From positions 1 through 54,754 of the IMG/VR virus record IMGVR_UViG_3300020202_000088: a stretch of 54,754 bases of DNA. One strand, written 5' to 3'. Position numbers and translations under genes: made by a program. The notes beneath the pieces are model-generated. The model saw only the letters and a program-made list of their open reading frames with translations, did no database searches and had not been told where the DNA came from. Every line of letters begins with the position of its first letter. The first letter of the stretch is position 1. Below are positions 12,578 through 40,606 of this stretch, one piece after another. This DNA is from a virus.

Positions 12578-12580
12578 TTA
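12555..12580. repeat. Two-block direct repeat, copy 1 (partner at 16500-16525)
   Basis: TTAATAG, then 7 variable bases, then ATTCCCGTTTTA. The same two blocks with identical spacing occur at 16500-16525 (21 of 26 positions match). Copy 1 overlaps the terminase stop codon. The pair brackets the terminase-integrase-methyltransferase segment. It could be a protein-binding site or promoter element; its function is unknown. Confidence 0.6.
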
Positions 12581-16604: not shown

Positions 16605-16642
16605 ACCCAAAAATTTTTATACTGGGTCCCATACTACCACTT
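16605..16642. promoter_or_regulatory. Element shared with the satellite segment (phage copy)
   Basis: ACCCAAAAATTT, then 5 differing bases, then a 21-bp block beginning CTGGGTCCCATACTACC. The block at 33468-33505 has both parts, with 33 of 38 positions identical and identical spacing. In both copies ACCCCCC follows 22-23 bp later. The flanks are otherwise unrelated. A shared non-coding site between a phage and its satellite is most easily explained as a packaging (pac/cos) or replication signal. Confidence 0.75.
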
Positions 16643-17015: not shown

Positions 17016-17043
17016 CGGCACGCGCGGTGCATTACTTAGTGGC

Positions 17044-24767: not shown

Positions 24768-25103
24768 ATGCGCTACCTGGCCATCGTCCTCTGTACGGTA
24801 ACCGTGGGCTGCTCGACCGCTGCGAAGCGGGAGGCCGCATTCGACGAGAGTCTCAAATCCTGGTTCGGGCGCAGCATCACCGAGTACGTGGCCGAGAACG
24901 GTAACCCGACCCGCTCCCTGGAGCTTCCGGGGGGCATTCGGTCCTACGAGTGGCAGCACTACGGGGACGTTGAGACGACCGTGGGCCCGGCGTACGGCGG
25001 CTTCCGCCACGTCTCCTCAGAACAAAAATCCTGCCGCATCACCTTGCTCACTGAGGTGACGGGCAGGATTCGGGAAGCCAGCTATGAGGGGCACTGCTAC
25101 TAA
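24768..25103 (+). CDS. Small lipoprotein, copy 1 (left boundary of satellite segment)
   Basis: 111 aa. The signal MRYLAIVLCTVTVGC has a lipobox, with mature Cys15. The remainder (FGRSITEYVAENGNPTRSLE, SYEWQHYGD, CRITLLTEVTGRIREASYEG) resembles short outer-membrane lipoproteins of the SmpA/OmlA-like style. It is nearly identical to the gene at 35680. The two differ in the first 115 nt but are identical over 221 bp. Probably the left half belongs to the phage and the right half to the satellite junction. Surface exclusion or envelope modification during lysogeny is a reasonable guess. Confidence 0.8.
   Translation: MRYLAIVLCTVTVGCSTAAKREAAFDESLKSWFGRSITEYVAENGNPTRSLELPGGIRSYEWQHYGDVETTVGPAYGGFRHVSSEQKSCRITLLTEVTGRIREASYEGHCY
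24882..25102 (+). repeat. 221-bp perfect direct repeat, left copy
   Basis: Identical to 35794-36014 over 221 bases, then one mismatch and 8 further matching bases. The 5' halves of the two genes differ at many positions, so identity is confined to the 3' two thirds. The distance between copies is 10,912 bp. Leaving one copy out gives a 43,714-bp phage circle. Confidence 0.95.
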
Positions 25104-25140
25104 TTGGCGGGTCCCGTCATTATGCAGAGTGGGGTTACTG

Positions 25141-26364
25141 ATGTTCCGCAATTCAGAGGATACGACGATTTGGCAGGGGCTAGGACAAGCATTGGGTTGG
25201 ACTACGCCGGAGCATTTTCGTTCCGTCGAGCGTGAACTAGGTAAAGGCAAGCTACACGCGCAGTTCGAAAACGAACTGATTGGAGCTATTCATAAGAACA
25301 AGAAAAGGATTTTCGTTCTTGCCGAATGGGGGGCGGGCAAAACCTTTCAATCGCTACTCTTTAGGCAAGAGTATGCTGACCGATACGCTTTTGAGTATTT
25401 TTCATTCTTTGGAATCCAAAATCTCTCGAGTGCTTATGTCCATGCGATGGGATTCATAGCGCGACTAGTGACCTTATGTGCCGGAGTTTTATGTCTCGCA
25501 CTTGTGCTGTCTCGGTTCGCCGACGACCTGAGGACGGTCAAAGCAAGTCCTCTCGTATCGCTGACCGCGACCTTGTTTGTGGGATTTTTTGTTTACGGGA
25601 ACCGCTGGAGGCTCGCTTACGTATTGGTGAGCATTTCAAAGCTATGGATCGCAGTTCGAGGGAGCAGGCGAGTAGTCATACTAGATGATCTAGATCGTTC
25701 CTCGCTCAGTGATTCGGATCGGTGGGCTTTCCTATCAGACTTATGGACTGTCAATACACAGTACATCATCTTGCTGGGCTACCTGAATCCCGATGACCGG
25801 ATCCAGATTGCAGACATCGCAAAGAAACTGGATGGTGCAATCATTTTTCTTGGGTCAAGTCGGCGCGAGAAGTTCGCCGTCGTTCAACATCTCTGGCCTG
25901 ATTCTCCTTTCCAATGGTCAGAGACCGGCACTGTCTACCATTGGCTAGACCACTTCACGCCTCGCGATTTCATAGCGGCAGCAGACTATGTGAATCGAGT
26001 AACGGGGGGCCGGCTAGGCGAAGCAAGTAAGAAGCTAGTCGGCGCAGCATTCATTCATCATGAGCTACAGATGAAGATTGGGATTCCTCGCGATCAGTTG
26101 CAGTATGCGTCGCTGAAAACTGAAAACACTCATCTTGCCCGCGACACGGATGCACGAATGCTCGGCCCGAAGCACGAAATGGCAAGTCAGACGCTAGCTA
26201 GTTTCGCAGGGACTCTGCTGCCTGAGGTAGCTAAGACAGCCTGCGATCTTAGAATTCATATGAGTCAGCAGATCGAGCCATTTCGGAGCTGGAATTCCAG
26301 CTTCCTGGTTCCTAGTCTGATTTCCTTCGAACAAGCCTTGAAGCAGAAGTCCTCACCAAGCTGA
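25141..26364 (+). CDS. KAP-family P-loop NTPase with membrane segments
   Basis: 407 aa from ATG 25141. Walker A is AEWGAGKTFQSLLF (about residue 57-70) and Walker B is RRVVILDDLDRSSLSD (about 180-190, the LDDLDR signature of KAP NTPases). Two transmembrane helices sit between them (LVTLCAGVLCLALVLS and SLTATLFVGFFVYG), as in membrane-anchored KAP proteins. F-plasmid PifA, which blocks phage T7, is a KAP protein. The gene lies beside attP at the edge of the element, where satellites and integrative elements carry defence cargo. The sequence is visibly more AT-rich than the phage genes. An anti-phage role is inference. Confidence 0.8.
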   Translation: MFRNSEDTTIWQGLGQALGWTTPEHFRSVERELGKGKLHAQFENELIGAIHKNKKRIFVLAEWGAGKTFQSLLFRQEYADRYAFEYFSFFGIQNLSSAYVHAMGFIARLVTLCAGVLCLALVLSRFADDLRTVKASPLVSLTATLFVGFFVYGNRWRLAYVLVSISKLWIAVRGSRRVVILDDLDRSSLSDSDRWAFLSDLWTVNTQYIILLGYLNPDDRIQIADIAKKLDGAIIFLGSSRREKFAVVQHLWPDSPFQWSETGTVYHWLDHFTPRDFIAAADYVNRVTGGRLGEASKKLVGAAFIHHELQMKIGIPRDQLQYASLKTENTHLARDTDARMLGPKHEMASQTLASFAGTLLPEVAKTACDLRIHMSQQIEPFRSWNSSFLVPSLISFEQALKQKSSPS

Positions 26365-26583
26365 GCCAGCCCGGGTTTGTGTCACATCTGTGTAACACCA
26401 TAGACGCGAAACGCCCGGTTATGCGCCGCATTCGACAGTAGTCTCGAACGCAGGTAACTGCTCGCGTTTATTTGATTTGTTGAGTGATGTCCGACGACTA
26501 CGTTTTTGCGGTAAGGCGAATTGACACGGTAGGGGTCGCTGGTTCAATCCCAGTCGAGCCAACCATTTAGAACTCGAAGCCCT
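26365..26583. other. Satellite attachment region with flanking 25-bp repeats
   Basis: Non-coding. A 25-bp sequence starting GTTTGTGTCAC and ending AACACC at 26375-26399 recurs at 26644-26668 (21 of 25 match), the second copy lying in the integrase 3' end. The tRNA-like core lies between them. The repeats could be integrase arm-type sites. No gene was seen. Confidence 0.55.
26538..26565 (+). other. attP: Satellite attP core: tRNA 3'-end mimic
   Basis: GCTGG-TTCAATC-CCAGT forms a T-arm, followed by acceptor bases CGAGCCA, discriminator A and CCA. No 5' half of a tRNA is present, so it is not a gene. It lies 18 bp from the integrase stop. Its intactness within the unit shows the element is not inserted through this site here. 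Confidence 0.75.
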
Positions 26584-27792
26584 TCAAGACCTTACAACGG
26601 AACCTTGAGGGGCTTTTTCTTTGGTGCGAAGCGACAATTCGGCGTTTGTGTCACGTTTGGGCAACACCTCCACCCGCTTTCCACCGTCGACCACGGTCAG
26701 ACCGCTCGCTGCCCCGTGGTCTACCAGCCCTCTGGCCCGCTCGTTCATCGCGAGCGAGAAGTGCGAGTAGCGTTCGGTCAGGCGCATGCTCTGATGCCCT
26801 AGCAGCTTCTGCAGGTCATAGAGATGCCCCCCGCCTTCCAGGAAGTGGACTGCGAAGGTGTGCCTGAGGTCATGGATCCTGACCCCCCGCACTCCAGCTC
26901 CCTTCAGTGCTTTGATAAAGCGCTTACGGAACTTGGTGGGGTGTCGGCACTCCGACCAGGCACCCCAGAATAGAGGGCCTTCAGGGTCCCGGCCTCGGGC
27001 GAGGCTCGCAACGAACTCGCTCATACCTGGCCCAAGCGGCAGCATGCGCGACCGCTTGCCCTTCGTGCGGTTCTGAACCTGCTGGCTCAGCTTGCAGTAG
27101 GTGCGGCTGATCTGCAGATAGAACCCGCTGCTGCCTCGGATCAGGTCCCGGGGCCTCAGGGCCGCCATCTCACCGAAGCGGATGCCTGTATTCAACAGCG
27201 TCCGCACCATCGGGTAGAGCCACGGGTCATGCGCTTGAAGCCATGTGAGCAGGCGAGCCGCCTCCTCCTGTGTGAGGTACTGGATGGCCTCCTGCTTCGC
27301 GAAGTCGGCCTCAGGCAGTTTCCGGATGCCTGTGACAGGGTTGAACGGGATGAGTTCCCAATGCACCGCCTGCGAGAGCATGCAGCCCAGAATCTGCCGG
27401 GTGCGGTTGACCCGCCCATTGCTGATGCCGAGCTGCCCTGACAAGAGGCTCAAGACACCTCGGATATCTCGTGCCGTGAGGCTCGCCAACTTGCGCTGTC
27501 CTAGGTAGGGAGCGAGATACATCCCATAAGTGCGGCCCTCCATCAGCCGAGTACCCGGAGTCTGCCGGTACTGTGCGTACTCCTTCTCGAAGCGTTCCCT
27601 GAGCTGATCTAGCGTCAGGTCTTCACCGGCAGTCGCAAGGGGGGCCAGGTCTCCCGCATCGCGCTTCGCGAGCATCTCCCGCTCCCAGCGTTCCGCGTCG
27701 ACCTTGCGCGCGAATGACTTGCTGAACTGCTTTCTGTGTATTCGAATGATTGCCCGATATGGCTTCTTTCGATTCGTAACGATGATTGCCAC
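26584..27792 (-). CDS. int: Tyrosine recombinase (satellite integrase)
   Basis: 402 aa. Arm-binding N-terminus (RAIIRIHRKQFSKSFARKVD), core-binding domain (about 65-170) and catalytic domain are all present. The catalytic set is complete: Arg in NTGIRFGEMAAL, Lys-containing hairpin (KGKRSRMLPLG), HxxR in IHDLRHTFAVHFL, His in LLGHQSMRLTERYSHF and the Tyr nucleophile in the same motif. It is unrelated in detail to the phage integrase at 14072, so the window holds two different integration systems. The C-terminus adjoins the tRNA-like attP. It should integrate the element into a tRNA gene. Confidence 0.92.
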   Translation of the reverse strand: MAIIVTNRKKPYRAIIRIHRKQFSKSFARKVDAERWEREMLAKRDAGDLAPLATAGEDLTLDQLRERFEKEYAQYRQTPGTRLMEGRTYGMYLAPYLGQRKLASLTARDIRGVLSLLSGQLGISNGRVNRTRQILGCMLSQAVHWELIPFNPVTGIRKLPEADFAKQEAIQYLTQEEAARLLTWLQAHDPWLYPMVRTLLNTGIRFGEMAALRPRDLIRGSSGFYLQISRTYCKLSQQVQNRTKGKRSRMLPLGPGMSEFVASLARGRDPEGPLFWGAWSECRHPTKFRKRFIKALKGAGVRGVRIHDLRHTFAVHFLEGGGHLYDLQKLLGHQSMRLTERYSHFSLAMNERARGLVDHGAASGLTVVDGGKRVEVLPKRDTNAELSLRTKEKAPQGSVVRS

Positions 27793-27795
27793 TGG

Positions 27796-28104
27796 TCACG
27801 TCCTTTCAGATGCAGGCAGTGTCCAGCGTTCGATTGTATCGGGGCAGAAGCGCAGGGCCGCGCCCACCTTGCGGTAGGGGATTGCGCGCCGGTATACCCA
27901 GTCACGCACGGTCCTCTCGCTCACGCTCAGATACCCGGCTACCTCGACTACGGTCCATAACGGGCGTTTCGCGTGCTTGGTTGTCAAAGAGCGAAGCGCC
28001 TTTGTAGCGCCCGCACTCTGTGGGTTCAACGCCTCAGTGTCGGGGAAGGGGATAAAGGGGCAGGCGGCGGCCTGCTCACCTGCCACTCGAACGTGCGTAC
28101 TCAT
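27796..28104 (-). CDS. Excisionase/AlpA-like helix-turn-helix protein
   Basis: 102 aa from ATG 28104, preceded by GGGAG; an in-frame start at 28212 is possible. The C-terminal domain (LWTVVEVAGYLSVSERTVRD, WVYRRAIPYRKVGAALRFC, DTIERW) is the MerR-like HTH_17 fold used by excisionases and AlpA regulators. It ends 4 nt before the integrase start, a typical xis-int arrangement. It probably controls integrase direction and satellite induction. Confidence 0.8.
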   Translation of the reverse strand: MSTHVRVAGEQAAACPFIPFPDTEALNPQSAGATKALRSLTTKHAKRPLWTVVEVAGYLSVSERTVRDWVYRRAIPYRKVGAALRFCPDTIERWTLPASERT

Positions 28105-28352
28105 CGAAGAACTCCCGGAACGTGGTGCGACCTCCTCAGCTTTGAGGAAGGAGCGTGGCCGCGAGTCCATCGCGACCGCTTGCCCAGGGCAGTCTCGGAA
28201 TGACTGGGCCACTTCGTCCGGGGATAGGCGCTGGATCAGTGGGGCAGAGTTGATTCCCTGTCAGTCTGCCCAATTCTCGCGGCACGCCCAGTAATTGCCT
28301 CTATTCTACCGTATCCGAGCGTGCGTCTCTAGTTGTGGCAAGCGAGACACGG

Positions 28353-28895
28353 TCACCGCTTGCGGGGTCGGAGCATGCGGCGCCGAGAGGTGATGCACTT
28401 CTCGACGTGCACGACAGGCTCGCCGAGTTCGTCGAAGAGCTGCGCGAACGGGAGCAGAGTGTCGATCGGCGCGATGCGGCCCTCGGAGGTCCAGATGTCG
28501 CCGTGGCGGCCTCGGTTTGCCTTACGATGCGCCTGGTAACGGTCCAAGTTCGTTCGGATGTGGTCAGCTAGAGCCGGCACCGCGAACTTGAACCAGATGC
28601 GAAGTGGAGCGGCCCAGAGAACGTACCAATCAGCACCCTCCGCCTCCGCTTTGAAGATGCCGCCAGGCAGAGACTCCTCCAGACTGCTCACAATCTCGAT
28701 ATAGAGGCGGTCAGTGGCTCCCGAATCGAGCTTGAGTTCAGCAAGGCTACCATCTGCCTCGATGATATCGACGCCTCGGCGGTCTGGATTGCGACGGCCG
28801 CCGAAGGCTTGGATGTAGGCACGCTCGATTGCGTTACCGCGGGCAAGGCACACGTCGAACTCGGAGCGATTCCGGGGCTTGGAAGACTTGGGCAT
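28353..28895 (-). CDS. PD-(D/E)XK nuclease-like protein, tentative
   Basis: 180 aa from ATG 28895; a longer frame to 29021 looks non-coding and runs into a terminator. The stretch RRGVDIIEADGSLAELKLDS matches the D-x(n)-ExK core of restriction-like nucleases, and RGNAIERAYIQAFGG could be the leading helix with Glu. The remainder (YIEIVSSLEES, DWYVLWAAPLRIWFKFAVP) is alpha/beta. It may be a satellite nuclease for processing or interfering with helper DNA. The assignment rests on one motif. Confidence 0.55.
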   Translation of the reverse strand: MPKSSKPRNRSEFDVCLARGNAIERAYIQAFGGRRNPDRRGVDIIEADGSLAELKLDSGATDRLYIEIVSSLEESLPGGIFKAEAEGADWYVLWAAPLRIWFKFAVPALADHIRTNLDRYQAHRKANRGRHGDIWTSEGRIAPIDTLLPFAQLFDELGEPVVHVEKCITSRRRMLRPRKR

Positions 28896-29017
28896 GGGTG
28901 GGCTACTTTCTTGGCGTGTAGAACGCCGGGGAGGGACCCAGACTAGCGTCAGGGCGTGTTGAGAAAAGCTCCCGCGAGCGGGAACGGGGTGGGAGAAGTG
29001 TGAGAGGAGGTAGGGGG

Positions 29018-29062
29018 GCAAAAGCCTCGGCTTAGAGCTCTAGATCGAGCTACGGCCGAGGC
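29018..29062 (-). terminator. Rho-independent terminator
   Basis: On the minus strand GCCTCGGC (29062-29055) pairs with GCCGAGGC (29031-29024) and TTTT follows. It ends the leftward satellite operon after the virion-protein homologue. Confidence 0.75.
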
Positions 29063-29079
29063 GAAGGGGGAAATCGAGG

Positions 29080-30468
29080 TTAAAGGAGGCGGCTGAGCTG
29101 CCCATTACCGGCGCGCGTCGGGCTGATGCCGGCCTTAGGTGCTGACTGAGAAGCAAAAATGTTCTGGTTGTAGTTGTACCCGCTCAGCTGCCCAGTGCCG
29201 CCGCCGGTGCCAGCGAACGTGCTGCCAGTCGTGGCGCCAGTGCCTGCGTCAGGGGCGGCAGAACCGCCCGCCTTGCGGCCCATTGCGGCTCCTAGACCGC
29301 CGCCGTAGCCACCAATGAAGCTGCCGATGCCGCCCGCCAGAGCATTTTCGAACAGGCTACTCTGTTGGGTCTGCTGCTGTTGACTGAAGGCTTCATTGGC
29401 TTGCTGCTGAGCTAGCTGCTGCTGCTGTTGGTCCGCGCCGATAACGGACATTTGCTGACTGTGGGCCTGATTCTGGGCCCCAAGCTGGCGGTTGAACTGA
29501 TTTGCGATGGCATTTTCCCCCAGCTCACCTAGGCCGCGCATATGCGACTGCGTCTGCCCGAGCAGCTGGCTGTTCAGATTCGCTCGCTGCGTGAGCATGT
29601 CACGCGCGGTGTTCACTCTGTCCGCCACAATCTTTCGCTGAGCGTTCGCAAGCTGCTCGAACTTGTTGCCCTGGAGGCCCGAGAACGCCTGCACCGCAGC
29701 ACCGGACGGGGCCTCTGCCAGGCCGCGGTCTGCGAGGGCCTGTGCAAGGGACGCCTCTTGGGAGCCGAACATTCGAGCGAGGTCATCCTTCGCTTGGCCG
29801 TAGGCTTCGAAGTCCTGGTTGTTCAGACTCCAGTAGTCGCCCTTGCCCGATAAGGCCTCACGGTCAGCATCGGCATTGGCGTAGTACTTCGATTCCTGGT
29901 CAGCGGCGCGGTTGTAGCTCTCGACGCCCTTGTTGAAGAAAGGGTCTTCTGACTGCAGCTTCTCAACCGCGTAACGGGTCGCAGTGGTGGGGTCGACGGC
30001 CATGAGAGTTTCAATTTCATGGGCCCGATCGTCATAGGTGTTGCCTTGCGCGCCATCCATGATCCGCTGGTGTTCAGCGAGAATGTCGGCGGCCGACTTG
30101 CCCTCGTTCTTCCAGGTGTTGATCAGACCCTCGCCGAACTTGTCGCGCAGGAGGCTTCCGTCCTTCAGGCGCGTGTTGTCGAACAGCGCGTTGCCCCTGA
30201 GGTTCGTATCGCCCTGAATCTGGCCGAAGATGTCCGCGACGCTCTTTCCCCAGTCATAAGACTTCTGGTCCTTAACGTAGCGTTCGCCTTTGAGGGAAGC
30301 GAGTGCATCAGCCAGGCTGGTTTTCCCGCTGCTGTAAGCGGACAAGGCATTCTGGACAGCCGGACTGCCGCCCAAGGCTTGCTGGAGCTTGGCGGCCTTG
30401 AGAGCGTCGCTCTCTGAAATCATGTTTTGGGCCGATTGGCCCTCTTTCTTGCCAAAGATGAAATCCAC
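29080..30468 (-). CDS. Satellite homologue of phage virion (ejection-type) protein
   Basis: 462 aa. It begins MDFIFGKKEGQSAQN and aligns nearly end to end with the phage protein at 50763-52061. Most residues are identical through about residue 400, including YVKDQKSYDWGKSVADIFG and ALAGGIGSFIGGYGGGLGA. At DNA level many third positions differ, so the copies have been separate for a long time. The C-terminal 60 residues differ, with a Gly/Thr-rich tail here. It is helical and Gln-rich with a Gly-rich membrane-like C-terminal segment, as in phage DNA-transfer/ejection proteins. It is the last gene of a leftward satellite operon. Confidence 0.85.
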   Translation of the reverse strand: MDFIFGKKEGQSAQNMISESDALKAAKLQQALGGSPAVQNALSAYSSGKTSLADALASLKGERYVKDQKSYDWGKSVADIFGQIQGDTNLRGNALFDNTRLKDGSLLRDKFGEGLINTWKNEGKSAADILAEHQRIMDGAQGNTYDDRAHEIETLMAVDPTTATRYAVEKLQSEDPFFNKGVESYNRAADQESKYYANADADREALSGKGDYWSLNNQDFEAYGQAKDDLARMFGSQEASLAQALADRGLAEAPSGAAVQAFSGLQGNKFEQLANAQRKIVADRVNTARDMLTQRANLNSQLLGQTQSHMRGLGELGENAIANQFNRQLGAQNQAHSQQMSVIGADQQQQQLAQQQANEAFSQQQQTQQSSLFENALAGGIGSFIGGYGGGLGAAMGRKAGGSAAPDAGTGATTGSTFAGTGGGTGQLSGYNYNQNIFASQSAPKAGISPTRAGNGQLSRLL

Positions 30469-30498
30469 GGAAAGTTCCTTAAGTGAGTGGCTAGGCCC

Positions 30499-30852
30499 TT
30501 AGTGCGGGGCTTCGCTAGGGGTGAGGTAGGCGAGACGGATGATCTTGCCCTTGAGACTTGCAATGGAGCGAAGGTCCGCCGTCGAGTCCTTGCGGAGGTT
30601 GGCCAGTTTCCCAATCAAGTAGTAGCGCTGAACCTGCAGGCTCTCGAACTCGAGACTCCTAGGCGGCAAGGCTAATCCAGCGTGGTGAAACTCGCGGAGC
30701 TTCTCTAGAAACCAGTCCAGCGGCTTACCTCGGTCGCCGTAGCGTTCGACATACCGAGCGAGTGCCAGCCACGGACACCATTTGGGTGAGTACGCGGTGT
30801 TCTGTTTAGAGAGACGCTTGGTGAACCAATGATTTCGTTTTCTCGCTTCCAC
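30499..30852 (-). CDS. Hypothetical satellite protein
   Basis: 117 aa with a GTG start (MEARKRNHWFTKRLSKQNTA). It is basic, aromatic-rich and helical (LALARYVERYGDRGKPLDWF, SLQVQRYYLIGKLANLRKDS). It is placed between two satellite genes in the virion-homologue operon. It may bind nucleic acid or helper proteins such as terminase; no family is recognised. Confidence 0.6.
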   Translation of the reverse strand: MEARKRNHWFTKRLSKQNTAYSPKWCPWLALARYVERYGDRGKPLDWFLEKLREFHHAGLALPPRSLEFESLQVQRYYLIGKLANLRKDSTADLRSIASLKGKIIRLAYLTPSEAPH

Positions 30853-30968
30853 GCCCTTATACGGATCGATCTAATCCCGCGACGCAGTTTCGGCTGATCC
30901 AAGTCTCAGTAATGGTAGGAGAAGAAATTTTTTCTAGGCACAAGTTCCTCAGGTTGTTGAGAAAACTG

Positions 30969-31478
30969 TTAAGCCTTGCGCGAAATAGGTTGGCTTATAG
31001 CGGCTGCATGCAATGCTGCAAGGACCGCGGCGTATTGCTCGAGCCATTCAAGTCTAGGTGCATCCGCGGCACAGCCTTGAGACAGCATGTACATCAGCTC
31101 CCCTTCGCAGTGGCTTCGGGCAACAGCCAGGAACTCTGCATCGAAGTTCCGCATCGGATCCTGCCAAGTTACCTTCGTCAGAACATCGCGGCAGTGACCG
31201 AGGTCTATCTGGTCCGGACCGTGGGCCGATACCCAGTGGAGTACGAAGCTCGTCAGCGAGTCGCCGCGAGTCCCGGGGCGGCGCTTTGCGAGGGCCTCGA
31301 TTCGATGCTTCTGCCACGCTGAGCGTTTTTTCCTACGAACCGCCACTCCATGCCTGCGTTCAGGGTCGCGACTTGAGGCTTGGCGTGCTTCTTCTTGAGC
31401 AAGCTCCAAACGGAACCAGTTGGGTCCCCTTGCGCGACTTTGGCTTCTTCTGGACTTTGATTTGCTTTGGGTCTCCAT
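30969..31478 (-). CDS. Hypothetical satellite protein with basic N-terminus
   Basis: 169 aa. The first 65 residues are Arg/Lys/Ser-rich (KSKSRRSQSRARGPNWFRLE, RRKKRSAWQKHRIEALAKR), followed by a helical domain (SLTSFVLHWVSAHGPDQIDL, WLEQYAAVLAALHAAAIS). Its start overlaps the stop of the replication gene (TAATG). It may be a nucleic-acid-binding partner of the primase-like protein. No family is recognised. Confidence 0.6.
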   Translation of the reverse strand: METQSKSKSRRSQSRARGPNWFRLELAQEEARQASSRDPERRHGVAVRRKKRSAWQKHRIEALAKRRPGTRGDSLTSFVLHWVSAHGPDQIDLGHCRDVLTKVTWQDPMRNFDAEFLAVARSHCEGELMYMLSQGCAADAPRLEWLEQYAAVLAALHAAAISQPISRKA

Positions 31479-32764
31479 TAGGCCGCCCCTGGCTTAGCCG
31501 GCAAAGTGGGTTGGGCTGATGCAGCCATCCGGCGCTTTGGCAGAGGATAATGGCTCTTAGCCAAGCCCAAGTGCTTCTCAGCTAGTCTCATTGCCTTCTG
31601 ATAGCGCCCCTTCACGTCCCAACTTGGCATGCTACGAACCCAGGCCAGATAAGCTTCAGGGGTCCCAGGAAAATGGAAGGTGCCGCAGTAGAGCCATTTG
31701 TCCCATTCGCCGTCGGGAATCTGGGCGGGGAGGGGGACGAGGTATATGCCCCCCGCGGCTTGGGAGGCTAGCTCGAGTACGGCTTTACGTAGCTCGCCTC
31801 GTGCTTCGTACTTCTTACACTTGGGGGCCCAACCTCGGGCCTTGGCTTTATCTGAGCCGTAGATGTACTCAGCGTCCGTGCACACGAGCAGCCCGAAGGC
31901 ATCCTGTAGACGCATCAGGTTTCTGCTGACCTGACTGTGGTCCCGGAGGCCGATTTCTCGGGCGAACTTCTTCTGATCCAACTGGAATCCGGAGTGCGCA
32001 AGATTCCACATGAGTACGAGGCGGCGGATGATGGCTTCGCGGGTCCTATGCCTGCCAATGTACTTGCGAAGTTCGGGATACGCGTCGAGCGAGCCTTCAT
32101 AGATCCGGTAGGTGTGAGCGGGGAACCCCCACACAGATATACCGTCATTGGTTAAACTCTCCCCTGCATTAGCCTCACGATCTACTTCCAGTAGGTGAGA
32201 CAGGTCATACGGCCTGCACCTAGGCAGGCCTTCAGCCAAGGCATCGATCATGTCGAGCGTTAACCGAGCCGTCCTAAGGCCCGCCCACTCGCCGTCTAGG
32301 GCGGAGTGCAGCCCCTCGGGAAGCGTCGTGCGCAGGAACTTCAGCGCTAGCTCGGCCGGCAGCTCCTTGTGGGCGTGCCAGTGAACCACGAAGAAGATCT
32401 TCACTTTGCCGCGAGGAGAACGCGTGACTACCGCCCTAGGCGAGTACATGTCCCGCATCACGGCGTAGAGCTGGTCAAAGTCCAAATAGGTTGAAGGTAA
32501 CTTGTCGATGTCGGCGCAGACGACGATCTGGTCGGACCAGCTAGGCTGCAGGTTCACGCGAGGTAGGTTGTCCTTTCGCACCTGCCACCACTGGTCGGTT
32601 CCCTGTTGAGCCGCCCTGTTCGCGATGGCCTCCGCCGCACTTACCTTGCCCTCCAACCAGACCCGCCCCGAAGTCATCCGCCAGTCTGAGACCTTGCCTT
32701 GATGCCAAGCCTTCGCGAATGGCAGGCCCGCGCCATTGGGAAGCCGGAACACAGGCTCACTCAT
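31478..32764 (-). CDS. Primase/replication-initiation-like protein of the satellite
   Basis: 428 aa from ATG 32764, which overlaps the preceding stop (ATGA). The N-terminal half contains IVVCADIDKLPSTYLDFDQ (paired acidic residues) and RAVVTRSPRGKVKIFFVVHW. This is the layout of archaeo-eukaryotic primase-type domains (motif I DxD, then an SxG.K/H strand). The C-terminal half includes REAIIRRLVLMWNLAHSGFQ and KFAREIGLRDHSQVSRNLMR, a winged helix-turn-helix. A combined primase plus DNA-binding protein is the usual replication gene of satellites and plasmids. The family call is provisional, since the metal-site His is not obvious. Confidence 0.6.
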   Translation of the reverse strand: MSEPVFRLPNGAGLPFAKAWHQGKVSDWRMTSGRVWLEGKVSAAEAIANRAAQQGTDQWWQVRKDNLPRVNLQPSWSDQIVVCADIDKLPSTYLDFDQLYAVMRDMYSPRAVVTRSPRGKVKIFFVVHWHAHKELPAELALKFLRTTLPEGLHSALDGEWAGLRTARLTLDMIDALAEGLPRCRPYDLSHLLEVDREANAGESLTNDGISVWGFPAHTYRIYEGSLDAYPELRKYIGRHRTREAIIRRLVLMWNLAHSGFQLDQKKFAREIGLRDHSQVSRNLMRLQDAFGLLVCTDAEYIYGSDKAKARGWAPKCKKYEARGELRKAVLELASQAAGGIYLVPLPAQIPDGEWDKWLYCGTFHFPGTPEAYLAWVRSMPSWDVKGRYQKAMRLAEKHLGLAKSHYPLPKRRMAASAQPTLPAKPGAA

Positions 32765-32991
32765 CGGCCGCTCCATTCCAGCACGAGGCAGAACTCGTCA
32801 CGGCCCATGGGGTGCGCCTGAAAGCGAATGCCGACCCTTTTGAGACAGGAGCGAGCTAACACGAAAGCCCCAGCCGCAGAGCCATTGACCCGCACCAGGT
32901 ACGAATCCCCGCCCGCCAACGTAGGAGCGGCAGCTTCAAGGATTCGGCCCACCGCAGGCGCATGCGCAGTTGCCAGATTTTCTTTGAACAT
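32761..32991 (-). CDS. Small satellite protein upstream of replication gene
   Basis: 76 aa from ATG 32991 (MFKENLATAHAPAVGRILEA), with GGGGAC upstream; a longer start at 33024 is possible. It is a mixed alpha/beta domain (DSYLVRVNGSAAGAFVLARS, RIGIR-like and FCLVLEWSGR). It is the first gene of the leftward operon leading to the primase-like protein. The function is unknown; a regulatory or replication accessory role is inferred from position. Confidence 0.6.
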   Translation of the reverse strand: MFKENLATAHAPAVGRILEAAAPTLAGGDSYLVRVNGSAAGAFVLARSCLKRVGIRFQAHPMGRDEFCLVLEWSGR

Positions 32992-33159
32992 AGTCCCCGC
33001 CCCGAATGACCTAAAGTAGAACACTCAGCTTGAATCAGGACTGGACAGTAGATCCGGGCTGGCGCTATGGTGACAAATATAGGAGTTACAGCTAGATAAC
33101 TGCCGCTTGATTCCTGACTAAGATTGTATATTATACAGGGTTTTCTCAAGGGGCAGCAA

Positions 33160-33173
33160 GCGCAAATTTGCGC
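33160..33173. promoter_or_regulatory. Perfect 14-bp palindrome in the satellite non-coding region
   Basis: GCGCAAATTTGCGC, an exact dyad about 170 bp upstream of the replication operon. It is a candidate operator or replication-protein site. Confidence 0.45.
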
Positions 33174-33467
33174 CAGTGCCGTGGATTGGCAGCTCGTGTT
33201 CGTGCGCGTTCGAGGCTCTAAACCAGCTTCATTGCTGTATAACGCGAATTAGTTGATTCCGCTGTAGCTGCGCAGAGCTGCCCACTGTGAATGCTACTTA
33301 GGAGACGTGCGACACTGCTGGATCCCTTCACATGATTCGGTGGCAGCTTTCAGCTGCGGCATCTGTATCCGCGCGCGTTCTAGATTGGGCGACTGCAAGA
33401 CAATGTACTGCAAGCGAGTTGTGGATGCAGACGGTAGGCGAGGCGAGGATTGTCACTTTCTCCAGGA

Positions 33468-33505
33468 ACCCAAAAATTTCTGGGCTGGGTCCCATACTAC
33501 CACTT
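33468..33505. promoter_or_regulatory. Element shared with the phage (satellite copy)
   Basis: ACCCAAAAATTT, 5 differing bases, then the 21-bp block beginning CTGGGTCCCATACTACC, as at 16605-16642. ACCCCCC begins 23 bp after the block, against 22 bp in the phage. The flanks share little else. A candidate packaging or replication site borrowed from the helper. Confidence 0.75.
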
Positions 33506-33609
33506 CTATTGGACCTGCTTTTTGCCTACCCCCCGGGGTGGCAGAGGTGGGCCGGGGGCTGCAGTAATCAACTGCTTGATGTTTCATCGTAGGGTTGAGT
33601 CAATGGGGG

Positions 33610-33789
33610 TCAACCTTTCGTTTCGAGTTTGTCTCGTACCTTAACTAGATCGAAGGCAACAGCATCAAGCTGCTGCTTGATTTCGATAAGTCGTCTCGTC
33701 ATGTTTTCATCCCGGGTTTGCGTGTGCGATTCCATTCGAGTGACGAGAAAAAAGACAAACAGAAACCCAAACGCTATCATCCAGTCCAT
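33610..33789 (-). CDS. 59-aa membrane-anchored coiled-coil protein
   Basis: MDWMIAFGFLFVFFLVTRME and onward. One N-terminal transmembrane helix is followed by a charged helix (MTRRLIEIKQQLDAVAFDLV). AGGTAA lies about 9 nt upstream. The topology resembles small i-spanin- or superinfection-type proteins. The role in the satellite is unknown. Confidence 0.55.
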   Translation of the reverse strand: MDWMIAFGFLFVFFLVTRMESHTQTRDENMTRRLIEIKQQLDAVAFDLVKVRDKLETKG

Positions 33790-33830
33790 TCGCCAGTTAC
33801 CTCCCTCTACTCGCTCTCACATGCCACCTC

Positions 33831-34028
33831 TCAATCTTTCATAAGCGCGCTATAAGCCTTCCTGCGCGATTCGAACTCTTGCCCGATCAATAACTCTATC
33901 ACTTGGCTCTGGCTCATATTGGTAGCCTTGGCGATGGCTAAAAGGCGTTTTACCGCCTCCTTCGGCAGGCGCACTGTTACGGGCTTGTCTCGCTTCTCAG
34001 TCTTTGCTGGGGCGACGGGTAGGGCCAT
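33831..34028 (-). CDS. Ribbon-helix-helix (CopG/Arc-like) protein
   Basis: 65 aa from ATG 34028 (MALPVAPAKTEKRDKPVTVR); a GTG at 34046 would add 6 residues. KPVTVRLPKEAVKRLLAIAK followed by NMSQSQVIELLIGQEFESRR is the strand-helix-helix pattern of CopG-like regulators. It is divergently oriented to the resolvase, so it may repress that promoter. It could also act in copy control or partition, as in plasmids. Confidence 0.75.
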   Translation of the reverse strand: MALPVAPAKTEKRDKPVTVRLPKEAVKRLLAIAKATNMSQSQVIELLIGQEFESRRKAYSALMKD

Positions 34029-34174
34029 ATAGCCACATTCTAGCACTCCCCTTGTAATCAGACCACTTCAAGTATTTCGCTGTACCTGCGCTTGTATTGC
34101 AAATGTCCGTCTGCTGTTCGCTCTTGACTCTGTGCAGCAAAAGGTTGATGCTGTGCACATGGAGGTATTGCAGT

Positions 34175-34753
34175 ATGCAGTACATATACTCGAGAGTGAG
34201 TACCGACAGGCAGGAAACGCTGAACCAGACCACGAACCTGCGTGCGCTGTACCCAAACGCTGCCGTGGTGGAGGAGGTGGCCTCAGGAGCGAAGCAGCGG
34301 CCAATGCTGCGCGAGCTGGTTGGTCGCCTTCAGAAAGGGGATGAGCTGATCGTGGCCGCCCTAGACCGACTGGGAAGGCGCACGTCGGAGGTACTGGCCC
34401 TTATCGAGGAGATGGACCGACGGGGGGTCATCCTGAAGTCCGTGCGTGAAGGCGTGGACTACGCGACGCTCACGGGCCGCTTGGTGACCCAGATCCTATG
34501 TAGCATTGCCGAAATGGAGCGTGGCCTGATTGCCGCACGTACAAAGGCAGCCCTGCAAGCGAGGAAGCAGCAGGGGATGAAGCTCGGCGCGAAGCCAAAG
34601 TTCGATGCTGTAACGGTCGCGAAGGTGCGCGAGCTGAAGGCACAAGGCCTCACTTGTCGTCAGATAGCGGCACAGGTAGGAGTCTCCGCGAGCCGTGTCT
34701 CTCAACTGACCAAGAATGCAGCGCCGGCGATTGAGCTAGCGCAAGCAAGCTAA
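34175..34753 (+). CDS. Serine recombinase (resolvase/invertase family)
   Basis: 192 aa from ATG 34175, with GGAGG 9 nt upstream. The catalytic N-terminal domain has YSRVSTDRQ (Ser nucleophile), ELIVAALDRLGRRTSEVL and MERGLIAARTKAALQARK (E-helix). The C-terminal HTH is LTCRQIAAQVGVSASRVSQL. The size and architecture are those of small resolvases/invertases, not large integrases. In a satellite or plasmid-like element it probably resolves multimers after replication. It could alternatively invert a segment, but no inverted res-like pair was noticed. Confidence 0.88.
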   Translation: MQYIYSRVSTDRQETLNQTTNLRALYPNAAVVEEVASGAKQRPMLRELVGRLQKGDELIVAALDRLGRRTSEVLALIEEMDRRGVILKSVREGVDYATLTGRLVTQILCSIAEMERGLIAARTKAALQARKQQGMKLGAKPKFDAVTVAKVRELKAQGLTCRQIAAQVGVSASRVSQLTKNAAPAIELAQAS

Positions 34754-34768
34754 CCAAAGGAGCGACCG

Positions 34769-35050
34769 ATGAAAGCGAATGGAATGTACTCAGTTGAAGT
34801 GGAACAGGCAATCAAGGCGGTAATCGCAAAGGGGGGATACCGCGTGTATCGCTGTTTGCGCCTGAAGGATGGTGTGAAGGCACGCGGCATGCGGGCGCGC
34901 ACTTATCGACAGGCAGTTGCCCGGCTTCAACAGCTGGAAGAAAGCGGACAGGGGACCTGCGTGGCGCCGGACCTTGCTGATGTCGCCTTCGAGATTCGCA
35001 AGGTGCCTTCGGGCTGGGCAGTGTATGCCCGCGACCCGAAGACAGTCTAA
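34769..35050 (+). CDS. Hypothetical satellite protein
   Basis: 93 aa, MKANGMYSVEVEQAIKAVIA. A basic alpha/beta start (KGGYRVYRCLRLKDGVKARG) precedes a helix (YRQAVARLQQLEESGQGTC) and a final strand pair (FEIRKVPSGWAVYARD). AAAGGAG lies 8 nt upstream, and the gene follows the resolvase by 15 nt. No family is recognised. Confidence 0.65.
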   Translation: MKANGMYSVEVEQAIKAVIAKGGYRVYRCLRLKDGVKARGMRARTYRQAVARLQQLEESGQGTCVAPDLADVAFEIRKVPSGWAVYARDPKTV

Positions 35051-35168
35051 GCTTAGTCCTCACGCCTATAGCGGTACGTAAGCTCACAGGCGACCTGCGG
35101 TACGTTTGCAGAATTCAGGGTCAGCAGTCATCGGCCCTACCAGGTCTCCGAACCCAAAGGAGACACAC

Positions 35169-35624
35169 ATGATCCAAGTTATTCGTAAGGACGAAGGCAA
35201 GTTCGAGTTCATCGCGCAGAAATCTGAACGGCACGAGAGGCTGCAGAGGACCTGCTCACAGGCAATGCTGATTGCGCTGCTTACAAGGGCCGGCTTTCAC
35301 GAGAGCGAGACACTTTTCTTGCTCAGCGACCTTGGGAGCGAGGATGGCCGGCTGAGTTACGCGCAGCTTGGCGAGGGCGAGTATCTAATTGTGGACTCTG
35401 CCAACGGCAAGGCAGTGTTCGGCGACTGCGATGTGTTCATGGGGTACTTGATGCGCGACCTCGGCCTCGACAGCCTGAGTGCATTATGGATCCTGCACGA
35501 TGCTGAAGGACACGCTCCGACGGGCGACGAGCTAGTCGAAATGGGGATTACTAGCGAGCAGTGGAATGAACTTGGCCTCGAGACTGTAGAAGTCGACCGC
35601 GGAAGTGACAGGAAGGCGAGCTAG
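35169..35624 (+). CDS. Hypothetical acidic satellite protein
   Basis: 151 aa from ATG 35169, preceded by AAAGGAGA. It is acidic, with a helical centre (RTCSQAMLIALLTRAGFHES) and beta-like YAQLGEGEYLIVDSANGKAV. It ends in an acidic tail rich in Asp/Glu. Acidic proteins of mobile elements can be DNA mimics or anti-restriction factors, but no ArdA-type signature was found. It lies next to the satellite lipoprotein. Confidence 0.65.
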   Translation: MIQVIRKDEGKFEFIAQKSERHERLQRTCSQAMLIALLTRAGFHESETLFLLSDLGSEDGRLSYAQLGEGEYLIVDSANGKAVFGDCDVFMGYLMRDLGLDSLSALWILHDAEGHAPTGDELVEMGITSEQWNELGLETVEVDRGSDRKAS

Positions 35625-35679
35625 CCGCAGATGGTGATTTTTCATTTCTCGACTCGCGAACCGCAGATACTCTCGACAT

Positions 35680-36015
35680 ATGAGATACCTAGCCATTGTC
35701 CTCTGTACTGCTGCTGTGGGCTGCTCGACCGCAGCGAAGCGGGAGGCCGCCTTCGACGAGAGCCTGAAGTCCTGGTTCGGGCGTAGCATCACTGAGTACG
35801 TGGCCGAGAACGGTAACCCGACCCGCTCCCTGGAGCTTCCGGGGGGCATTCGGTCCTACGAGTGGCAGCACTACGGGGACGTTGAGACGACCGTGGGCCC
35901 GGCGTACGGCGGCTTCCGCCACGTCTCCTCAGAACAAAAATCCTGCCGCATCACCTTGCTCACTGAGGTGACGGGCAGGATTCGGGAAGCCAGCTATGAG
36001 GGGCACTGCTACTAG
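35680..36015 (+). CDS. Small lipoprotein, copy 2 (right boundary of satellite segment)
   Basis: 111 aa. The lipoprotein signal MRYLAIVLCTAAVGC is followed by the same mature sequence as copy 1 at 24768; only signal residues 11-12 differ (TV versus AA), though the first 115 nt carry numerous silent changes. A GATACT box lies 8 nt before the ATG, again a very short leader. The stop overlaps the stop of the convergent phage gene. I infer that the 5' part is the satellite allele and the 3' part the junction with the phage. Both replicons would thus encode the same envelope lipoprotein. Confidence 0.8.
   Translation: MRYLAIVLCTAAVGCSTAAKREAAFDESLKSWFGRSITEYVAENGNPTRSLELPGGIRSYEWQHYGDVETTVGPAYGGFRHVSSEQKSCRITLLTEVTGRIREASYEGHCY
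35794..36014 (+). repeat. 221-bp perfect direct repeat, right copy
   Basis: Identical to 24882-25102. Divergence begins immediately 5' (silent substitutions in the lipoprotein gene) and 3' (one mismatch, 8 matches, then unrelated sequence). Confidence 0.95.
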
Positions 36016-38612: not shown

Positions 38613-39107
38613 ATGGAACGCGATGCGTACGAGTCTGACTCTGTTGTGTTGATAAAACGGAACGCGCGTCGCAACGCCCACGGGACGTGGTACGGCTTGT
38701 ACCGATGCGGCTGCGGAACTGAGTTTGAAGCACGAACTACCAACGTCAACACTGGACGGACCCGGTCGTGCGGGTGCTTGCAGCGAACCCGCTCTGCAGA
38801 GACTCTGCGCAAGCTTCGCCTCCGCCACGGTAGGACTGGGACGCGATTGCACCGAATCTGGGTCGCTATGCGCAGGCGATGCGACTATCCCGCAGGCCAC
38901 AATTACGCCTACTACGGCGGTCGCGGAATCACTGTTTGCGCGCGCTGGCGGGACTCATTTGAGTCCTTTGCCGGAGACATGGGCGAGCCGCCCACCGAGC
39001 ACCACAGCATCGATCGCATAGATCCAGATGGAAACTACGAGCCAGGTAACTGCCGCTGGGCCACCCGCTCTGAACAGATGCGGAACACTCGGAGGTCTAA
39101 TGACTGA
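38613..39107 (+). CDS. HNH endonuclease
   Basis: 164 aa. The N-terminal zinc-finger-like half (YGLYRCGCGTEFEARTTNVN, RTRSCGCLQRTRS) is followed by an HNH core, EHHSIDRIDPDGNYEPGNCR and W. This carries the His-Asn-type metal site and the DGNY..NCRWAT signature shared by phage HNH/AP2-type homing endonucleases. It lies at the head of the replication block, and the next gene begins inside its end. It is probably a homing endonuclease or a processing nuclease. Confidence 0.85.
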   Translation: MERDAYESDSVVLIKRNARRNAHGTWYGLYRCGCGTEFEARTTNVNTGRTRSCGCLQRTRSAETLRKLRLRHGRTGTRLHRIWVAMRRRCDYPAGHNYAYYGGRGITVCARWRDSFESFAGDMGEPPTEHHSIDRIDPDGNYEPGNCRWATRSEQMRNTRRSND

Positions 39108-39867
39108 GCCTTACGCCCCAGATGCATTTTGGATGTCGAAGCTGAGCGACTACCGTCGCTGTCCGCGGCTGTTCAAGCTGAAACACCTCGACAAGGTCAA
39201 AGTAGAGGCGCCACCAAGCGCCGACCAGGAGTTCGGGACTGCGATGCACCTGGGCTGCGAGGACATCCTGCGTGGGGGCGAAGGTATCCCGCTGTTCGCG
39301 ATGTACTGGGACACGCTAAAGGGCAAGGCGGCCGCCTACACGCGCCACGACTGGGAAAAGCTGCGCGAGATGGGCGAGGTCTTCCTGGCGCGCTTCAAGC
39401 GGCTGCACGCAAAGCACTTCGAACCCTTCAAGATCGAAGAGCGCATCCATGCGCAGCTTGGGCCCCACAAGTTCGAAGGCACGCCCGACTTCGTGGGCAG
39501 TTACAAAGGCAAGCGCAGCATCGTGGACTTCAAGACCGCGGGCTTCAAGTACGACAAGTCCAAGATCATCTGCGACGAGCAGATGCCGACCTACGCCGCG
39601 CTTGTGAAGCAGGAGTACGGCTACGACGTCGAGCAGGTCGTCTACATCGTGTTCGTGAAGTCGCCCACCGACCCGAGCATCCAGACGCTCGTTCTGCCCT
39701 TGACGTCTGGTGTAATACAGTGTACTATAGATAACGTAATTGAGACTTGCGATGATCTCGTGGCCCGCAAGTCCTTCCCCCGAAACCCCGGGGGCTGCCT
39801 GTTCGGGCAGACGCGGTGTGCGATGTGGGACCTGTGCCACGGTAAGGAGTCGAACAATGAATCTTGA
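39100..39867 (+). CDS. PD-(D/E)XK exonuclease (Cas4/AddB-like)
   Basis: 255 aa from ATG 39100, with GGAGG just upstream; an upstream in-frame ATG lies within the HNH gene. RRCPRLFKL at the start and CLFGQTRCAMWDLC at the end supply four Cys, as in Cas4/AddB iron-sulfur nucleases. FEGTPDFVGSYKGKRSIVDF then KTA gives the D-x(n)-DxK nuclease core, and QMPTYAALVKQEYG the QxxxY motif. It directly precedes the Rad52-like gene, a typical exonuclease-annealase pair. An operator-bearing promoter lies inside the coding sequence at 39700. Confidence 0.85.
   Translation: MTEPYAPDAFWMSKLSDYRRCPRLFKLKHLDKVKVEAPPSADQEFGTAMHLGCEDILRGGEGIPLFAMYWDTLKGKAAAYTRHDWEKLREMGEVFLARFKRLHAKHFEPFKIEERIHAQLGPHKFEGTPDFVGSYKGKRSIVDFKTAGFKYDKSKIICDEQMPTYAALVKQEYGYDVEQVVYIVFVKSPTDPSIQTLVLPLTSGVIQCTIDNVIETCDDLVARKSFPRNPGGCLFGQTRCAMWDLCHGKESNNES
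39700..39728 (+). promoter_or_regulatory. Intragenic promoter with operator before the annealase
   Basis: -35 TTGACG (39700-39705), 17-bp spacer and -10 TACTAT (39723-39728). GTGTAATACAG (39710-39720) is in the spacer. It lies within the nuclease gene, 130 bp before the Rad52-like start. Confidence 0.55.
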
Positions 39868-40606
39868 GGAACTGCGGAAGAAGCTAGACGAGAAGATCCC
39901 GCGCGACGTCATCTCGCTGCGCGACGGTGGCGGCAATCGCAAGCTCAGCTACCTCGAAGGCTGGTACGTCATCGACCGCCTCAACCAGGTCCTGGGTCAG
40001 GGCAACTGGGCCTACGTCACCGAGGAGATGCGCCTGGTGCACGAGGGCGAGGGCCCGAAGGGCGGCTTCGTGGCGCACTACATCGCGCGCGTGCGGCTCG
40101 AGGTGCCCGGTCTCGGCCACTGCATCTTCGTGGACTACGGCTACGGCGACGGCAGCGACAAGTTCTCGCCCGGCAAGGCGCACGAGCTGGCCGTGAAGGA
40201 GGCTGTGACGGACGCGGTCAAGCGCTGCGCCAAGAACCTGGGCATGAGCATGGGGCTCGCGCTCTACGACAAGACTCAGGAGAACGTGGATGATGGAGAA
40301 GCTGAACCCGCCCCTGCTCCCAGGGCCGTGGCCCAAGCCGCTCCAAAGCCTGCCCCCATCGGCAAAGCAGCACCCGTTCAAGCAGCGGTTCCAAGCAGCG
40401 CTGTCTCGGAAGCGGCGCCAGAAGACCGGGACCAGCTCAACCAAATGATTTCGAGCATGGCGAAAGTTGCAATGGCCAAGAAGCTCACTACGGCCAACGA
40501 GTTGCGGAAGCAGATGAAGGACAAGTGGGGCAAGGACGCAAAGGAAGACCTAACCGACGCGGAAGCCAAGCAGCTTTACGCTGAACTGAGAGGGATGATC
40601 GCATGA
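39857..40606 (+). CDS. Rad52/22-type single-strand annealing protein
   Basis: 249 aa. The N-terminal domain (SYLEGWYVIDRLNQVLGQGN, YVTEEMRLVHEGEGPKGGFV, FVDYGYGDGSDKFSPGKAHE, then AVKEAVTDAVKRCAKNLG) is the Rad52_Rad22 annealase core. An Ala/Pro linker (about 150-190) leads to a helical C-terminal tail. Annealases of this type pair resected ends, supporting concatemer formation and recombination. They also make recombination between short homologies efficient. That is relevant to the crossover in the 221-bp repeat. It overlaps the nuclease gene by 11 nt. Confidence 0.88.
   Translation: MNLEELRKKLDEKIPRDVISLRDGGGNRKLSYLEGWYVIDRLNQVLGQGNWAYVTEEMRLVHEGEGPKGGFVAHYIARVRLEVPGLGHCIFVDYGYGDGSDKFSPGKAHELAVKEAVTDAVKRCAKNLGMSMGLALYDKTQENVDDGEAEPAPAPRAVAQAAPKPAPIGKAAPVQAAVPSSAVSEAAPEDRDQLNQMISSMAKVAMAKKLTTANELRKQMKDKWGKDAKEDLTDAEAKQLYAELRGMIA

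What the first reader, a model, noticed from the sequence alone, without database searches (positions are those of the whole stretch)
24882..36014. A 10.9-kb satellite-like element fused to its putative helper phage through a shared lipoprotein gene
Seen directly: a 221-bp perfect direct repeat at 24882-25102 and 35794-36014, inside two lipoprotein genes that differ by silent changes upstream of it. The unit between (10,912 bp) has its own integrase, excisionase-like protein, tRNA-end attP, primase-like protein, resolvase and regulators but no packaging or capsid genes. The attP is intact inside the unit, so integrase did not make the join. Inference: a single crossover between two circles (satellite and phage) in a homologous gene, or an assembly graph path merging two co-occurring circles. 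Either reading implies two replicons sharing a cell, one of them an apparently undescribed satellite of a short-tailed phage.
Basis: partly seen in the sequence, partly recalled or inferred. Interest (0 to 1): 0.95.

Follow-up and report, generated by a model that had tools for sequence, protein, structure and literature searches.

The report
Phage satellite fused to its helper
A 10.9-kb parasite-of-a-phage sits inside a 43.7-kb phage genome, joined to it by recombination in a gene both carry; its integration site matches predatory Bdellovibrio-type bacteria, so it may be the first sign of a phage satellite in that group, although we could not check whether the fusion itself is real or an assembly artefact.

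Summary
The 221-bp perfect repeat is real (24882-25102 / 35794-36014) and sits in two copies of one small lipoprotein gene whose first 114 bp differ at 16 sites (dS about 0.7). Such a mosaic requires recent recombination between the copies. The 10,912-bp unit between them is foreign to the phage. Four relatives of the phage lack it; two of these are circular, at about 43.7 and 44.6 kb, close to the 43,714 bp this phage has without the unit. The unit has its own integrase and one intact 48-bp attP.

New findings: (1) The attP core is identical to the 3' half of tRNA-Val(GAC) of Bdellovibrionota; a 22-mer from it hits only ten of 84,980 genomes, all in that phylum. (2) The unit carries a second, selectively maintained copy (86% aa, dN/dS 0.07) of a gene in the phage's tail/virion module. 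(3) Unit and phage share a 38-nt intergenic site, upstream of the terminase operon in the phage: a candidate packaging or control signal. (4) The phage encodes a Rad52-type annealing protein, a plausible agent of the crossover.

Best reading: a phage satellite, probably of this phage, in a predatory bacterium. Whether the 54.6-kb circle exists in nature or was made by the assembler is undecided without reads.

The parts
24768..25103 (+). Lipoprotein gene, left copy; in the crossover model, phage 5' part joined to unit 3' part
   Evidence: weak PHROG 3716 match
24882..25102 (+). 221-bp perfect direct repeat, copy 1 (recombination tract)
35680..36015 (+). Lipoprotein gene, right copy; in the crossover model, unit 5' part joined to phage 3' part
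35794..36014 (+). 221-bp perfect direct repeat, copy 2
24882..35793 (.). The 10,912-bp unit (putative satellite), one repeat period
   Evidence: absent from four phage relatives; divergent tetranucleotide composition
25141..26364 (+). KAP-like P-loop NTPase with putative membrane segments (cargo, possibly anti-phage)
   Evidence: weak KAP_NTPase match E=0.018, below the curated cut-off; Walker-type motifs EWGAGKT and ILDDLDR read from the translation
26521..26568 (+). attP core, 48 bp, identical to the tRNA-Val(GAC) 3' half (anticodon to CCA plus TTT) of Bdellovibrionota; single copy
   Evidence: same core in L104
26584..27792 (-). Tyrosine integrase of the unit (402 aa)
   Evidence: Phage_integrase E=2.6e-19; phrog_1 E=1.4e-55
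27796..28212 (-). HTH_17 excisionase/AlpA-type DNA-binding protein
   Evidence: PF12728 E=1.5e-9, above cut-off; TIGR01764 excise, above cut-off
28353..29021 (-). Unknown protein, possibly a PD-(D/E)xK-type nuclease (inference from residues GVDIIEADGSLAELKLD only; annotated start uncertain)
   Evidence: no family match; sequence
29080..30468 (-). Unit-borne second copy of a phage virion-module protein (putative internal/ejection protein), 86% aa over 403 residues to 50763-52061, different C-terminus
   Evidence: dN 0.110, dS 1.68
30499..30852 (-). Unknown 117-aa protein
30969..31478 (-). Unknown 169-aa protein
31478..32776 (-). Putative replication protein (primase-like by residues, VVCADID motif; not confirmed)
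   Evidence: relative in a Bdellovibrionota genome, E=1.2e-6, beside a family-B polymerase
32761..33024 (-). Unknown 87-aa protein
33468..33505 (+). Unit copy of the shared 38-nt site, followed by ACCCCCC 22 nt later
33831..34046 (-). Ribbon-helix-helix regulator
   Evidence: RHH_1 E=9.3e-6, above cut-off
34097..34753 (+). Serine resolvase/invertase
   Evidence: phrog_125 E=4.6e-47
34769..35050 (+). Unknown 93-aa protein
35106..35624 (+). Unknown protein (up to 172 aa; start uncertain)
16605..16642 (+). Phage copy of the shared 38-nt site, upstream of the leftward terminase operon, followed by ACCCCCC 21 nt later
50763..52061 (-). Phage's own copy of the virion-module protein
   Evidence: one copy each in G003, G004, G007
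12578..14044 (-). Phage terminase large subunit
   Evidence: phrog_2 E=4.8e-40
39028..39867 (+). Phage PD-(D/E)XK exonuclease
   Evidence: PF12705 E=1.3e-17; PHROG exonuclease
39740..40606 (+). Phage Rad52-type annealing protein (start uncertain), candidate agent of the crossover
   Evidence: PF04098 E=3.7e-27
14072..15184 (-). Phage's own tyrosine integrase
   Evidence: phrog_1 E=1.3e-6; 40-43% to G004 and G007 homologues

Best explanation
The 10.9-kb unit is a phage satellite: an integrative element with its own integrase, excisionase-type regulator and putative replication protein, but no terminase, portal or capsid genes. Its normal site is the tRNA-Val(GAC) gene of a Bdellovibrionota (predatory-lineage) bacterium, and the 43.7-kb temperate phage in the same contig is its likely helper. 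Shown: it is separate from the phage; it carries its own long-diverged, selectively maintained copies of two phage genes (a virion-module protein and a lipoprotein); it shares a 38-nt intergenic site with the phage; and the lipoprotein gene was recently recombined between the two. Inferred: on helper infection or induction it excises, replicates with its own protein and enters helper particles through the shared site, possibly as a tetramer (phage circle / unit = 4.006), supplying its own version of an ejection-type protein and carrying lipoprotein and KAP-like NTPase cargo. The fusion seen here arose by one homologous crossover in the lipoprotein gene, probably helped by the phage's Rad52-type annealing protein and exonuclease, and not by either integrase.
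For: Repeat and mosaic divergence: 16/114 sites then 0/221; 5' part dS 0.72, dN 0.036. Unit absent from G001, G003, G004, G007; in G001, the nearest by terminase (73%), the genes flanking the unit are about 0.5 kb apart with a different small gene between. Circles of relatives about 43.7 kb (G003) and 44.6 kb (G004) against 43,714 bp without the unit. Tetranucleotide distance 0.203 against at most 0.165 for phage segments of equal length; GC 57.7% against 61.0%. Integrase and HTH_17. 48-bp attP identical to tRNA-Val(GAC); the 22-mer occurs in ten genome contigs, all Bdellovibrionota; a second, unrelated element (L104) uses the same core beside its integrase. Virion-module paralogue 86% aa, dN/dS about 0.07. 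Shared 38-nt site with an exact 20-nt core, 0 expected by chance; similar sequence upstream of terminase in G003 and G004. Rad52 and exonuclease genes.
Against: No standalone copy of the unit was found in viral contigs, phages, plasmids or 369 Bdellovibrionota genomes. Dependence on a helper was not shown. The 'primase' is not confirmed. The shared site could be an operator, promoter or origin instead of a packaging signal, and it is not recognisable in G001 or G007. The host of the phage itself is less certain: its putative attP has three mismatches over 26 nt to Bdellovibrionota tmRNA ends and was not found with up to two mismatches, and only distant terminase relatives occur in the phylum.
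Confidence: 0.68

Rival explanations
1. Assembly merge: two separate circles (43.7-kb phage, 10.9-kb element) that co-occur in the sample were joined by the assembler through the 221-bp identical tract. The biology (satellite plus helper sharing a gene) stands, but the 54.6-kb circle does not exist.
For: The joint is exactly an identical repeat longer than usual assembly k-mers. 54.6 kb is 25% above the 43.7-44.6 kb circles of relatives, so one particle would hardly hold it. The closed-circle end overlap of about 126 bp resembles k-mer-sized overlaps (G004 has exactly 127).
Against: An assembler normally breaks at an unresolved two-in, two-out repeat; choosing the crossed path at both passes usually needs read-pair or long-read support (general knowledge of assemblers). 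Even this rival needs a recent transfer or conversion to make 221 identical bp beside 14% divergence.
Confidence: 0.45
2. The unit is an integrative plasmid or genomic island of the host with no dependence on the phage, which picked up phage genes as cargo and was captured by recombination.
For: No packaging or capsid-size genes recognised; ribbon-helix-helix and resolvase genes also suit plasmids; many unknown genes.
Against: It keeps a virion-module gene under strong purifying selection and a phage-like intergenic site, which a phage-independent island has no evident use for. No plasmid relative of its replication protein was found.
Confidence: 0.2
3. The unit is part of the phage's own normal genome, or a degraded second prophage: a larger temperate phage with two integrases.
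For: One closed circle with both; paralogous genes can arise by duplication.
Against: Absent from four relatives; two circular relatives match the size without the unit. Paralogue dS 1.7 is not a recent duplication. Intact attP with its own host tRNA identity, and composition unlike any phage segment. No terminase, portal or capsid remnants.
Confidence: 0.06
4. The shared 38-nt site is a regulatory operator or promoter through which a phage regulator switches the unit on, rather than a packaging site.
For: In both elements it lies between a leftward operon and rightward genes; both copies have ACCCA...TGGGT arms.
Against: In the phage it is upstream of the terminase operon, and the G003 and G004 counterparts add a conserved AT block and C-rich block there, which suits a packaging region; this does not exclude an operator.
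Confidence: 0.4

Closest known systems
PICMI (phage-inducible chromosomal minimalist islands; PMC10803314)
   Same: Small; integrase, HTH_17/AlpA-type regulator and a replication protein; no capsid-remodelling gene recognised; length close to a whole fraction of the helper (PICMI 1/8, here 1/4), as for concatemer packaging.
   Different: Not Vibrionaceae, not at fis; no DUF3987/DUF5906 primase domain found; nearly twice the size; carries a helper virion-module paralogue.
HE-PICI (helper-embedded PICIs; PMC10111431)
   Same: A satellite lying inside its putative helper's genome; the founding HE-PICI is presumed to be packaged by the helper's cos machinery.
   Different: HE-PICIs are put in late genes by their integrase; here attP is intact, the joint is homologous recombination in an accessory lipoprotein gene, and the element's own site is a tRNA gene.
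P4-like satellites
   Same: About 10-11 kb, integrase beside a tRNA attachment site, a cis site shared with the helper, cargo hotspot (own knowledge; P4 average 10 kb in PMC10803314).
   Different: No P4 replication, Sid, Psu or Delta homologues matched in the family searches.
cf-PICI and satellite-plasmids (PISP; PMC13230959)
   Same: Satellites that encode some virion components of their own.
   Different: Those encode capsid genes; here only one tail/virion-module protein, closely related to the helper's.

Membership tests
Phage satellite (general) | 7-20 kb integrative element with integrase, regulator and replication genes | tested here: met
   10,912 bp; integrase and HTH_17 confirmed; replication protein only probable
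Phage satellite (general) | Lacks a full set of structural and packaging genes | tested here: met
   one virion-module paralogue present
Phage satellite (general) | Shares a packaging signal with the helper | tested here: inconclusive
   38-nt shared site upstream of phage terminase operon; function unproven
Phage satellite (general) | Induced and packaged only with a helper phage | not testable with these tools
   needs culture or reads
PICMI | Integrase PF00589 and AlpA-type PF12728 | tested here: met
PICMI | Primase with DUF3987/DUF5906 | tested here: not met
PICMI | Integration next to fis in Vibrionaceae | tested here: not met
   attP is tRNA-Val(GAC) of Bdellovibrionota
HE-PICI | Integrase-mediated insertion in a helper late gene | tested here: not met
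   single intact attP elsewhere in the unit; joint is a 221-bp repeat
cf-PICI | Own capsid, portal and terminase genes | tested here: not met
P4-like | P4 alpha primase-helicase, Psu, Delta, Sid | tested here: not met
   no such match in Pfam, PHROGs or NCBIfam
PLE | PLE capsid-hijack and replication genes, Vibrio cholerae | not tested
   host phylum differs; PLE genes not searched individually

The most novel reading that the evidence does not exclude
An undescribed family of phage satellites lives in predatory Bdellovibrionota, maintains its own version of a helper virion (ejection-type) protein, and repeatedly merges with and separates from its helper by homologous recombination at shared genes, so that satellite and helper can travel and evolve as a natural cointegrate: a parasite of a virus of a bacterium that eats bacteria.
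Probability: 0.28. Interest if true: 0.8.

Novelty: new variant of a known kind. Interest (0 to 1): 0.66.

Why it matters
Phage satellites are best described in a few bacterial groups, such as enterics, vibrios, staphylococci and streptococci; my searches of the open literature found none described for Bdellovibrionota. A satellite there would add a further level of parasitism above predatory bacteria and supply markers (attP, shared site, paralogue) for finding more. The element also illustrates gene flow between satellite and helper: two shared genes, one recently homogenised, and a virion-module gene kept under strong selection by an element that has no capsid genes. That is a direct, testable lead to a satellite that alters what is inside its helper's particle.

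Tried and rejected
Single-protein pattern scans of viral contigs for the unit's integrase, replication protein and virion paralogue found no relative. Phage and plasmid collections gave no match for the replication protein, and the phage collection none for the virion paralogue; integrase matches were generic, below 30%. Terminase alignment in genome contigs found nothing; within Bdellovibrionota only distant terminases, and no relative of the virion-module protein. The unit's integrase has only generic relatives there, up to about 36% identity and many beside tRNAs, none at tRNA-Val among the loci checked. Exact 20-nt core of the shared site in viral contigs: none. AlphaFold models of the virion paralogue and the replication protein were too poor to use (mean pLDDT 40 and 37), so no fold search was made. 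PDB profile searches gave nothing credible. DNA folding of the shared site shows nothing beyond shuffles. The phage's own attP looks like a tmRNA 3' end, but the Rfam score is insignificant and it is not exact in Bdellovibrionota. A defence-system search gave only insignificant matches.
Full report
OBSERVATION. The window is a whole IMG/VR record of 54,754 bp. Its two ends overlap by 128 bp with one mismatch, so it is a circle of 54,626 bp. It is the 3' two thirds of a 111-aa lipoprotein gene present twice (24768-25103, 35680-36015). The preceding 114 bp of the gene differ at 16 sites (13 synonymous and 3 nonsynonymous changes; dS 0.72, dN 0.036), then 221 bp have no difference, then the stop codons differ (TAA/TAG), eight more bases agree (TTGGCGGG), and homology ends. 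At 14% divergence a run of 221 identical bases is not expected by chance; a recent exchange or conversion between the two copies is required. The eight bases after the stop lie, in the phage, inside the end of the convergent gene at 36012 (read from the sequence), which hints that the unit's copy was once taken from such a phage.

THE UNIT IS NOT PHAGE CONTENT. A terminase search of viral contigs gave phage relatives: G001 (21.6 kb fragment, 73% terminase identity), G003 (43,895 bp), G004 (44,736 bp) and G007 (43,926 bp). None carries the unit's genes except one virion-module homologue each in G003, G004 and G007 and a weak match to another integrase in G001. G003 and G004 have end repeats, giving circles of about 43.7 and 44.6 kb; the present phage without the unit is 43,714 bp. 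In G001 the genes matching those on either side of the unit lie about 0.5 kb apart, with a different small secreted-type gene between. Unit GC is 57.7% against 61.0%, and its tetranucleotide distance from the phage (0.203) exceeds that of every phage segment of equal length (0.098-0.165).

THE UNIT'S GENES. Tyrosine integrase, HTH_17/excisionase-type protein, serine resolvase, ribbon-helix-helix regulator, a weakly KAP-like NTPase and several unknowns. The 432-aa 'primase-like' protein matches no family. Its only relative lies in a Bdellovibrionota genome, 31% over its C-terminal part, encoded beside a family-B DNA polymerase and between recombinase genes not far from tRNA-Ser genes. I treat it as a replication protein by inference.

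HOST. The attP core at 26521-26568 occurs once. A 22-mer from it matches ten stretches in 84,980 species genomes; all ten are titled Bdellovibrionales, Bdellovibrionota, Oligoflexia, Bdellovibrio or Bacteriovoracaceae, and all are tRNA-Val(GAC) genes. The alignment shows 48 bp from the anticodon to CCA plus TTT identical to the best matching genomes. The only viral contig with the 22-mer, L104, is an unrelated 38% GC element with the same core next to its own integrase, an independent sign that this site is used. The phage's own host is less certain: its putative attP near 15.3 kb resembles Bdellovibrionota tmRNA ends with three mismatches over 26 nt.

SHARED GENES AND SITE. dS is 1.68 (near saturation, so approximate) and dN 0.110, so the ratio is about 0.07: an old copy kept by selection. 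The phage copy sits among tail-fibre-like and lysis-like genes and has single homologues in G003, G004 and G007. 'Ejection protein' is my inference from position and Gln/Gly-rich sequence; structure prediction failed. A 38-nt segment at 16605-16642 (phage) and 33468-33505 (unit) is 89% identical with an exact 20-nt core, 0 expected in shuffles. Both are followed by ACCCCCC 21 and 22 nt later, and both lie between a leftward operon and rightward genes; in the phage the leftward operon carries the terminase. In G003 and G004 the best alignment of the phage segment falls upstream of the terminase in the right orientation; two-base-block-shuffled queries did so in 2 of 60 for each genome and never in both. 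The alignment scores themselves are no better than those of shuffled genomes, so it is the position that carries the evidence. G001 and G007 show nothing. Packaging site, operator and origin all remain possible.

MECHANISM. Shown: separate element, intact attP, recent homologous exchange. Inferred: a single crossover between two circles in the lipoprotein gene. The phage encodes a Rad52-type annealing protein overlapping a PD-(D/E)XK exonuclease gene, a suitable machinery. The unit is 1/4.006 of the phage circle; PICMI satellites are packaged as concatemers matching helper length. That is suggestive only, since about one length in eighty would fit an integer so closely.

ARTEFACT QUESTION. No reads are available. 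An assembler could cross two circles at a 221-bp repeat, and a 54.6-kb circle is 25% above the relatives' genome size. Against this, a joined contig usually needs read support at both passes. I put real cointegrate and assembly merge at roughly even odds. Either way the two elements have exchanged DNA recently and so have met in one cell lineage.

COMPARISON. The gene plan and size are those of phage satellites. [quoted passage not shown] HE-PICIs are the closest precedent for a satellite inside its helper, but there the integrase makes the join. I found no report of satellites in Bdellovibrionota in the open-access library, which misses most subscription papers.

Noticed in passing
window 15294-15330: tmRNA 3'-end-like sequence (rc ...GGGTCGGACTCCCACCGGCTCCACCA) next to the phage's own integrase gene, a probable phage attP; three mismatches over 26 nt to tmRNA ends of Bdellovibrionota.
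   Followed up: partly
L104 6834-6855 (IMGVR_UViG_3300012940_000107): An unrelated 38% GC viral contig with the same tRNA-Val(GAC) attP core beside its own integrase and HTH gene, so another Bdellovibrionota element using this site.
   Followed up: partly
L061 6868-18202 (Bdellovibrionota genome G072): Apparent mobile element near two tRNA-Ser genes with two tyrosine recombinases, a family-B DNA polymerase and a primase-like protein related to the unit's replication protein.
   Followed up: partly
window 16360-17030: About 670-bp noncoding region with C-rich and short repeat tracts between leftward late genes and rightward genes of the phage.
   Followed up: partly
window 52061-52510: GNAT acetyltransferase gene inside the phage's tail module, upstream of the virion-module gene that the unit duplicates.
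   Followed up: no
window 22416-23399 and 15359-16087: Phage carries a glycosyltransferase and a methyltransferase-like gene, possible surface or DNA modification functions.
   Followed up: no
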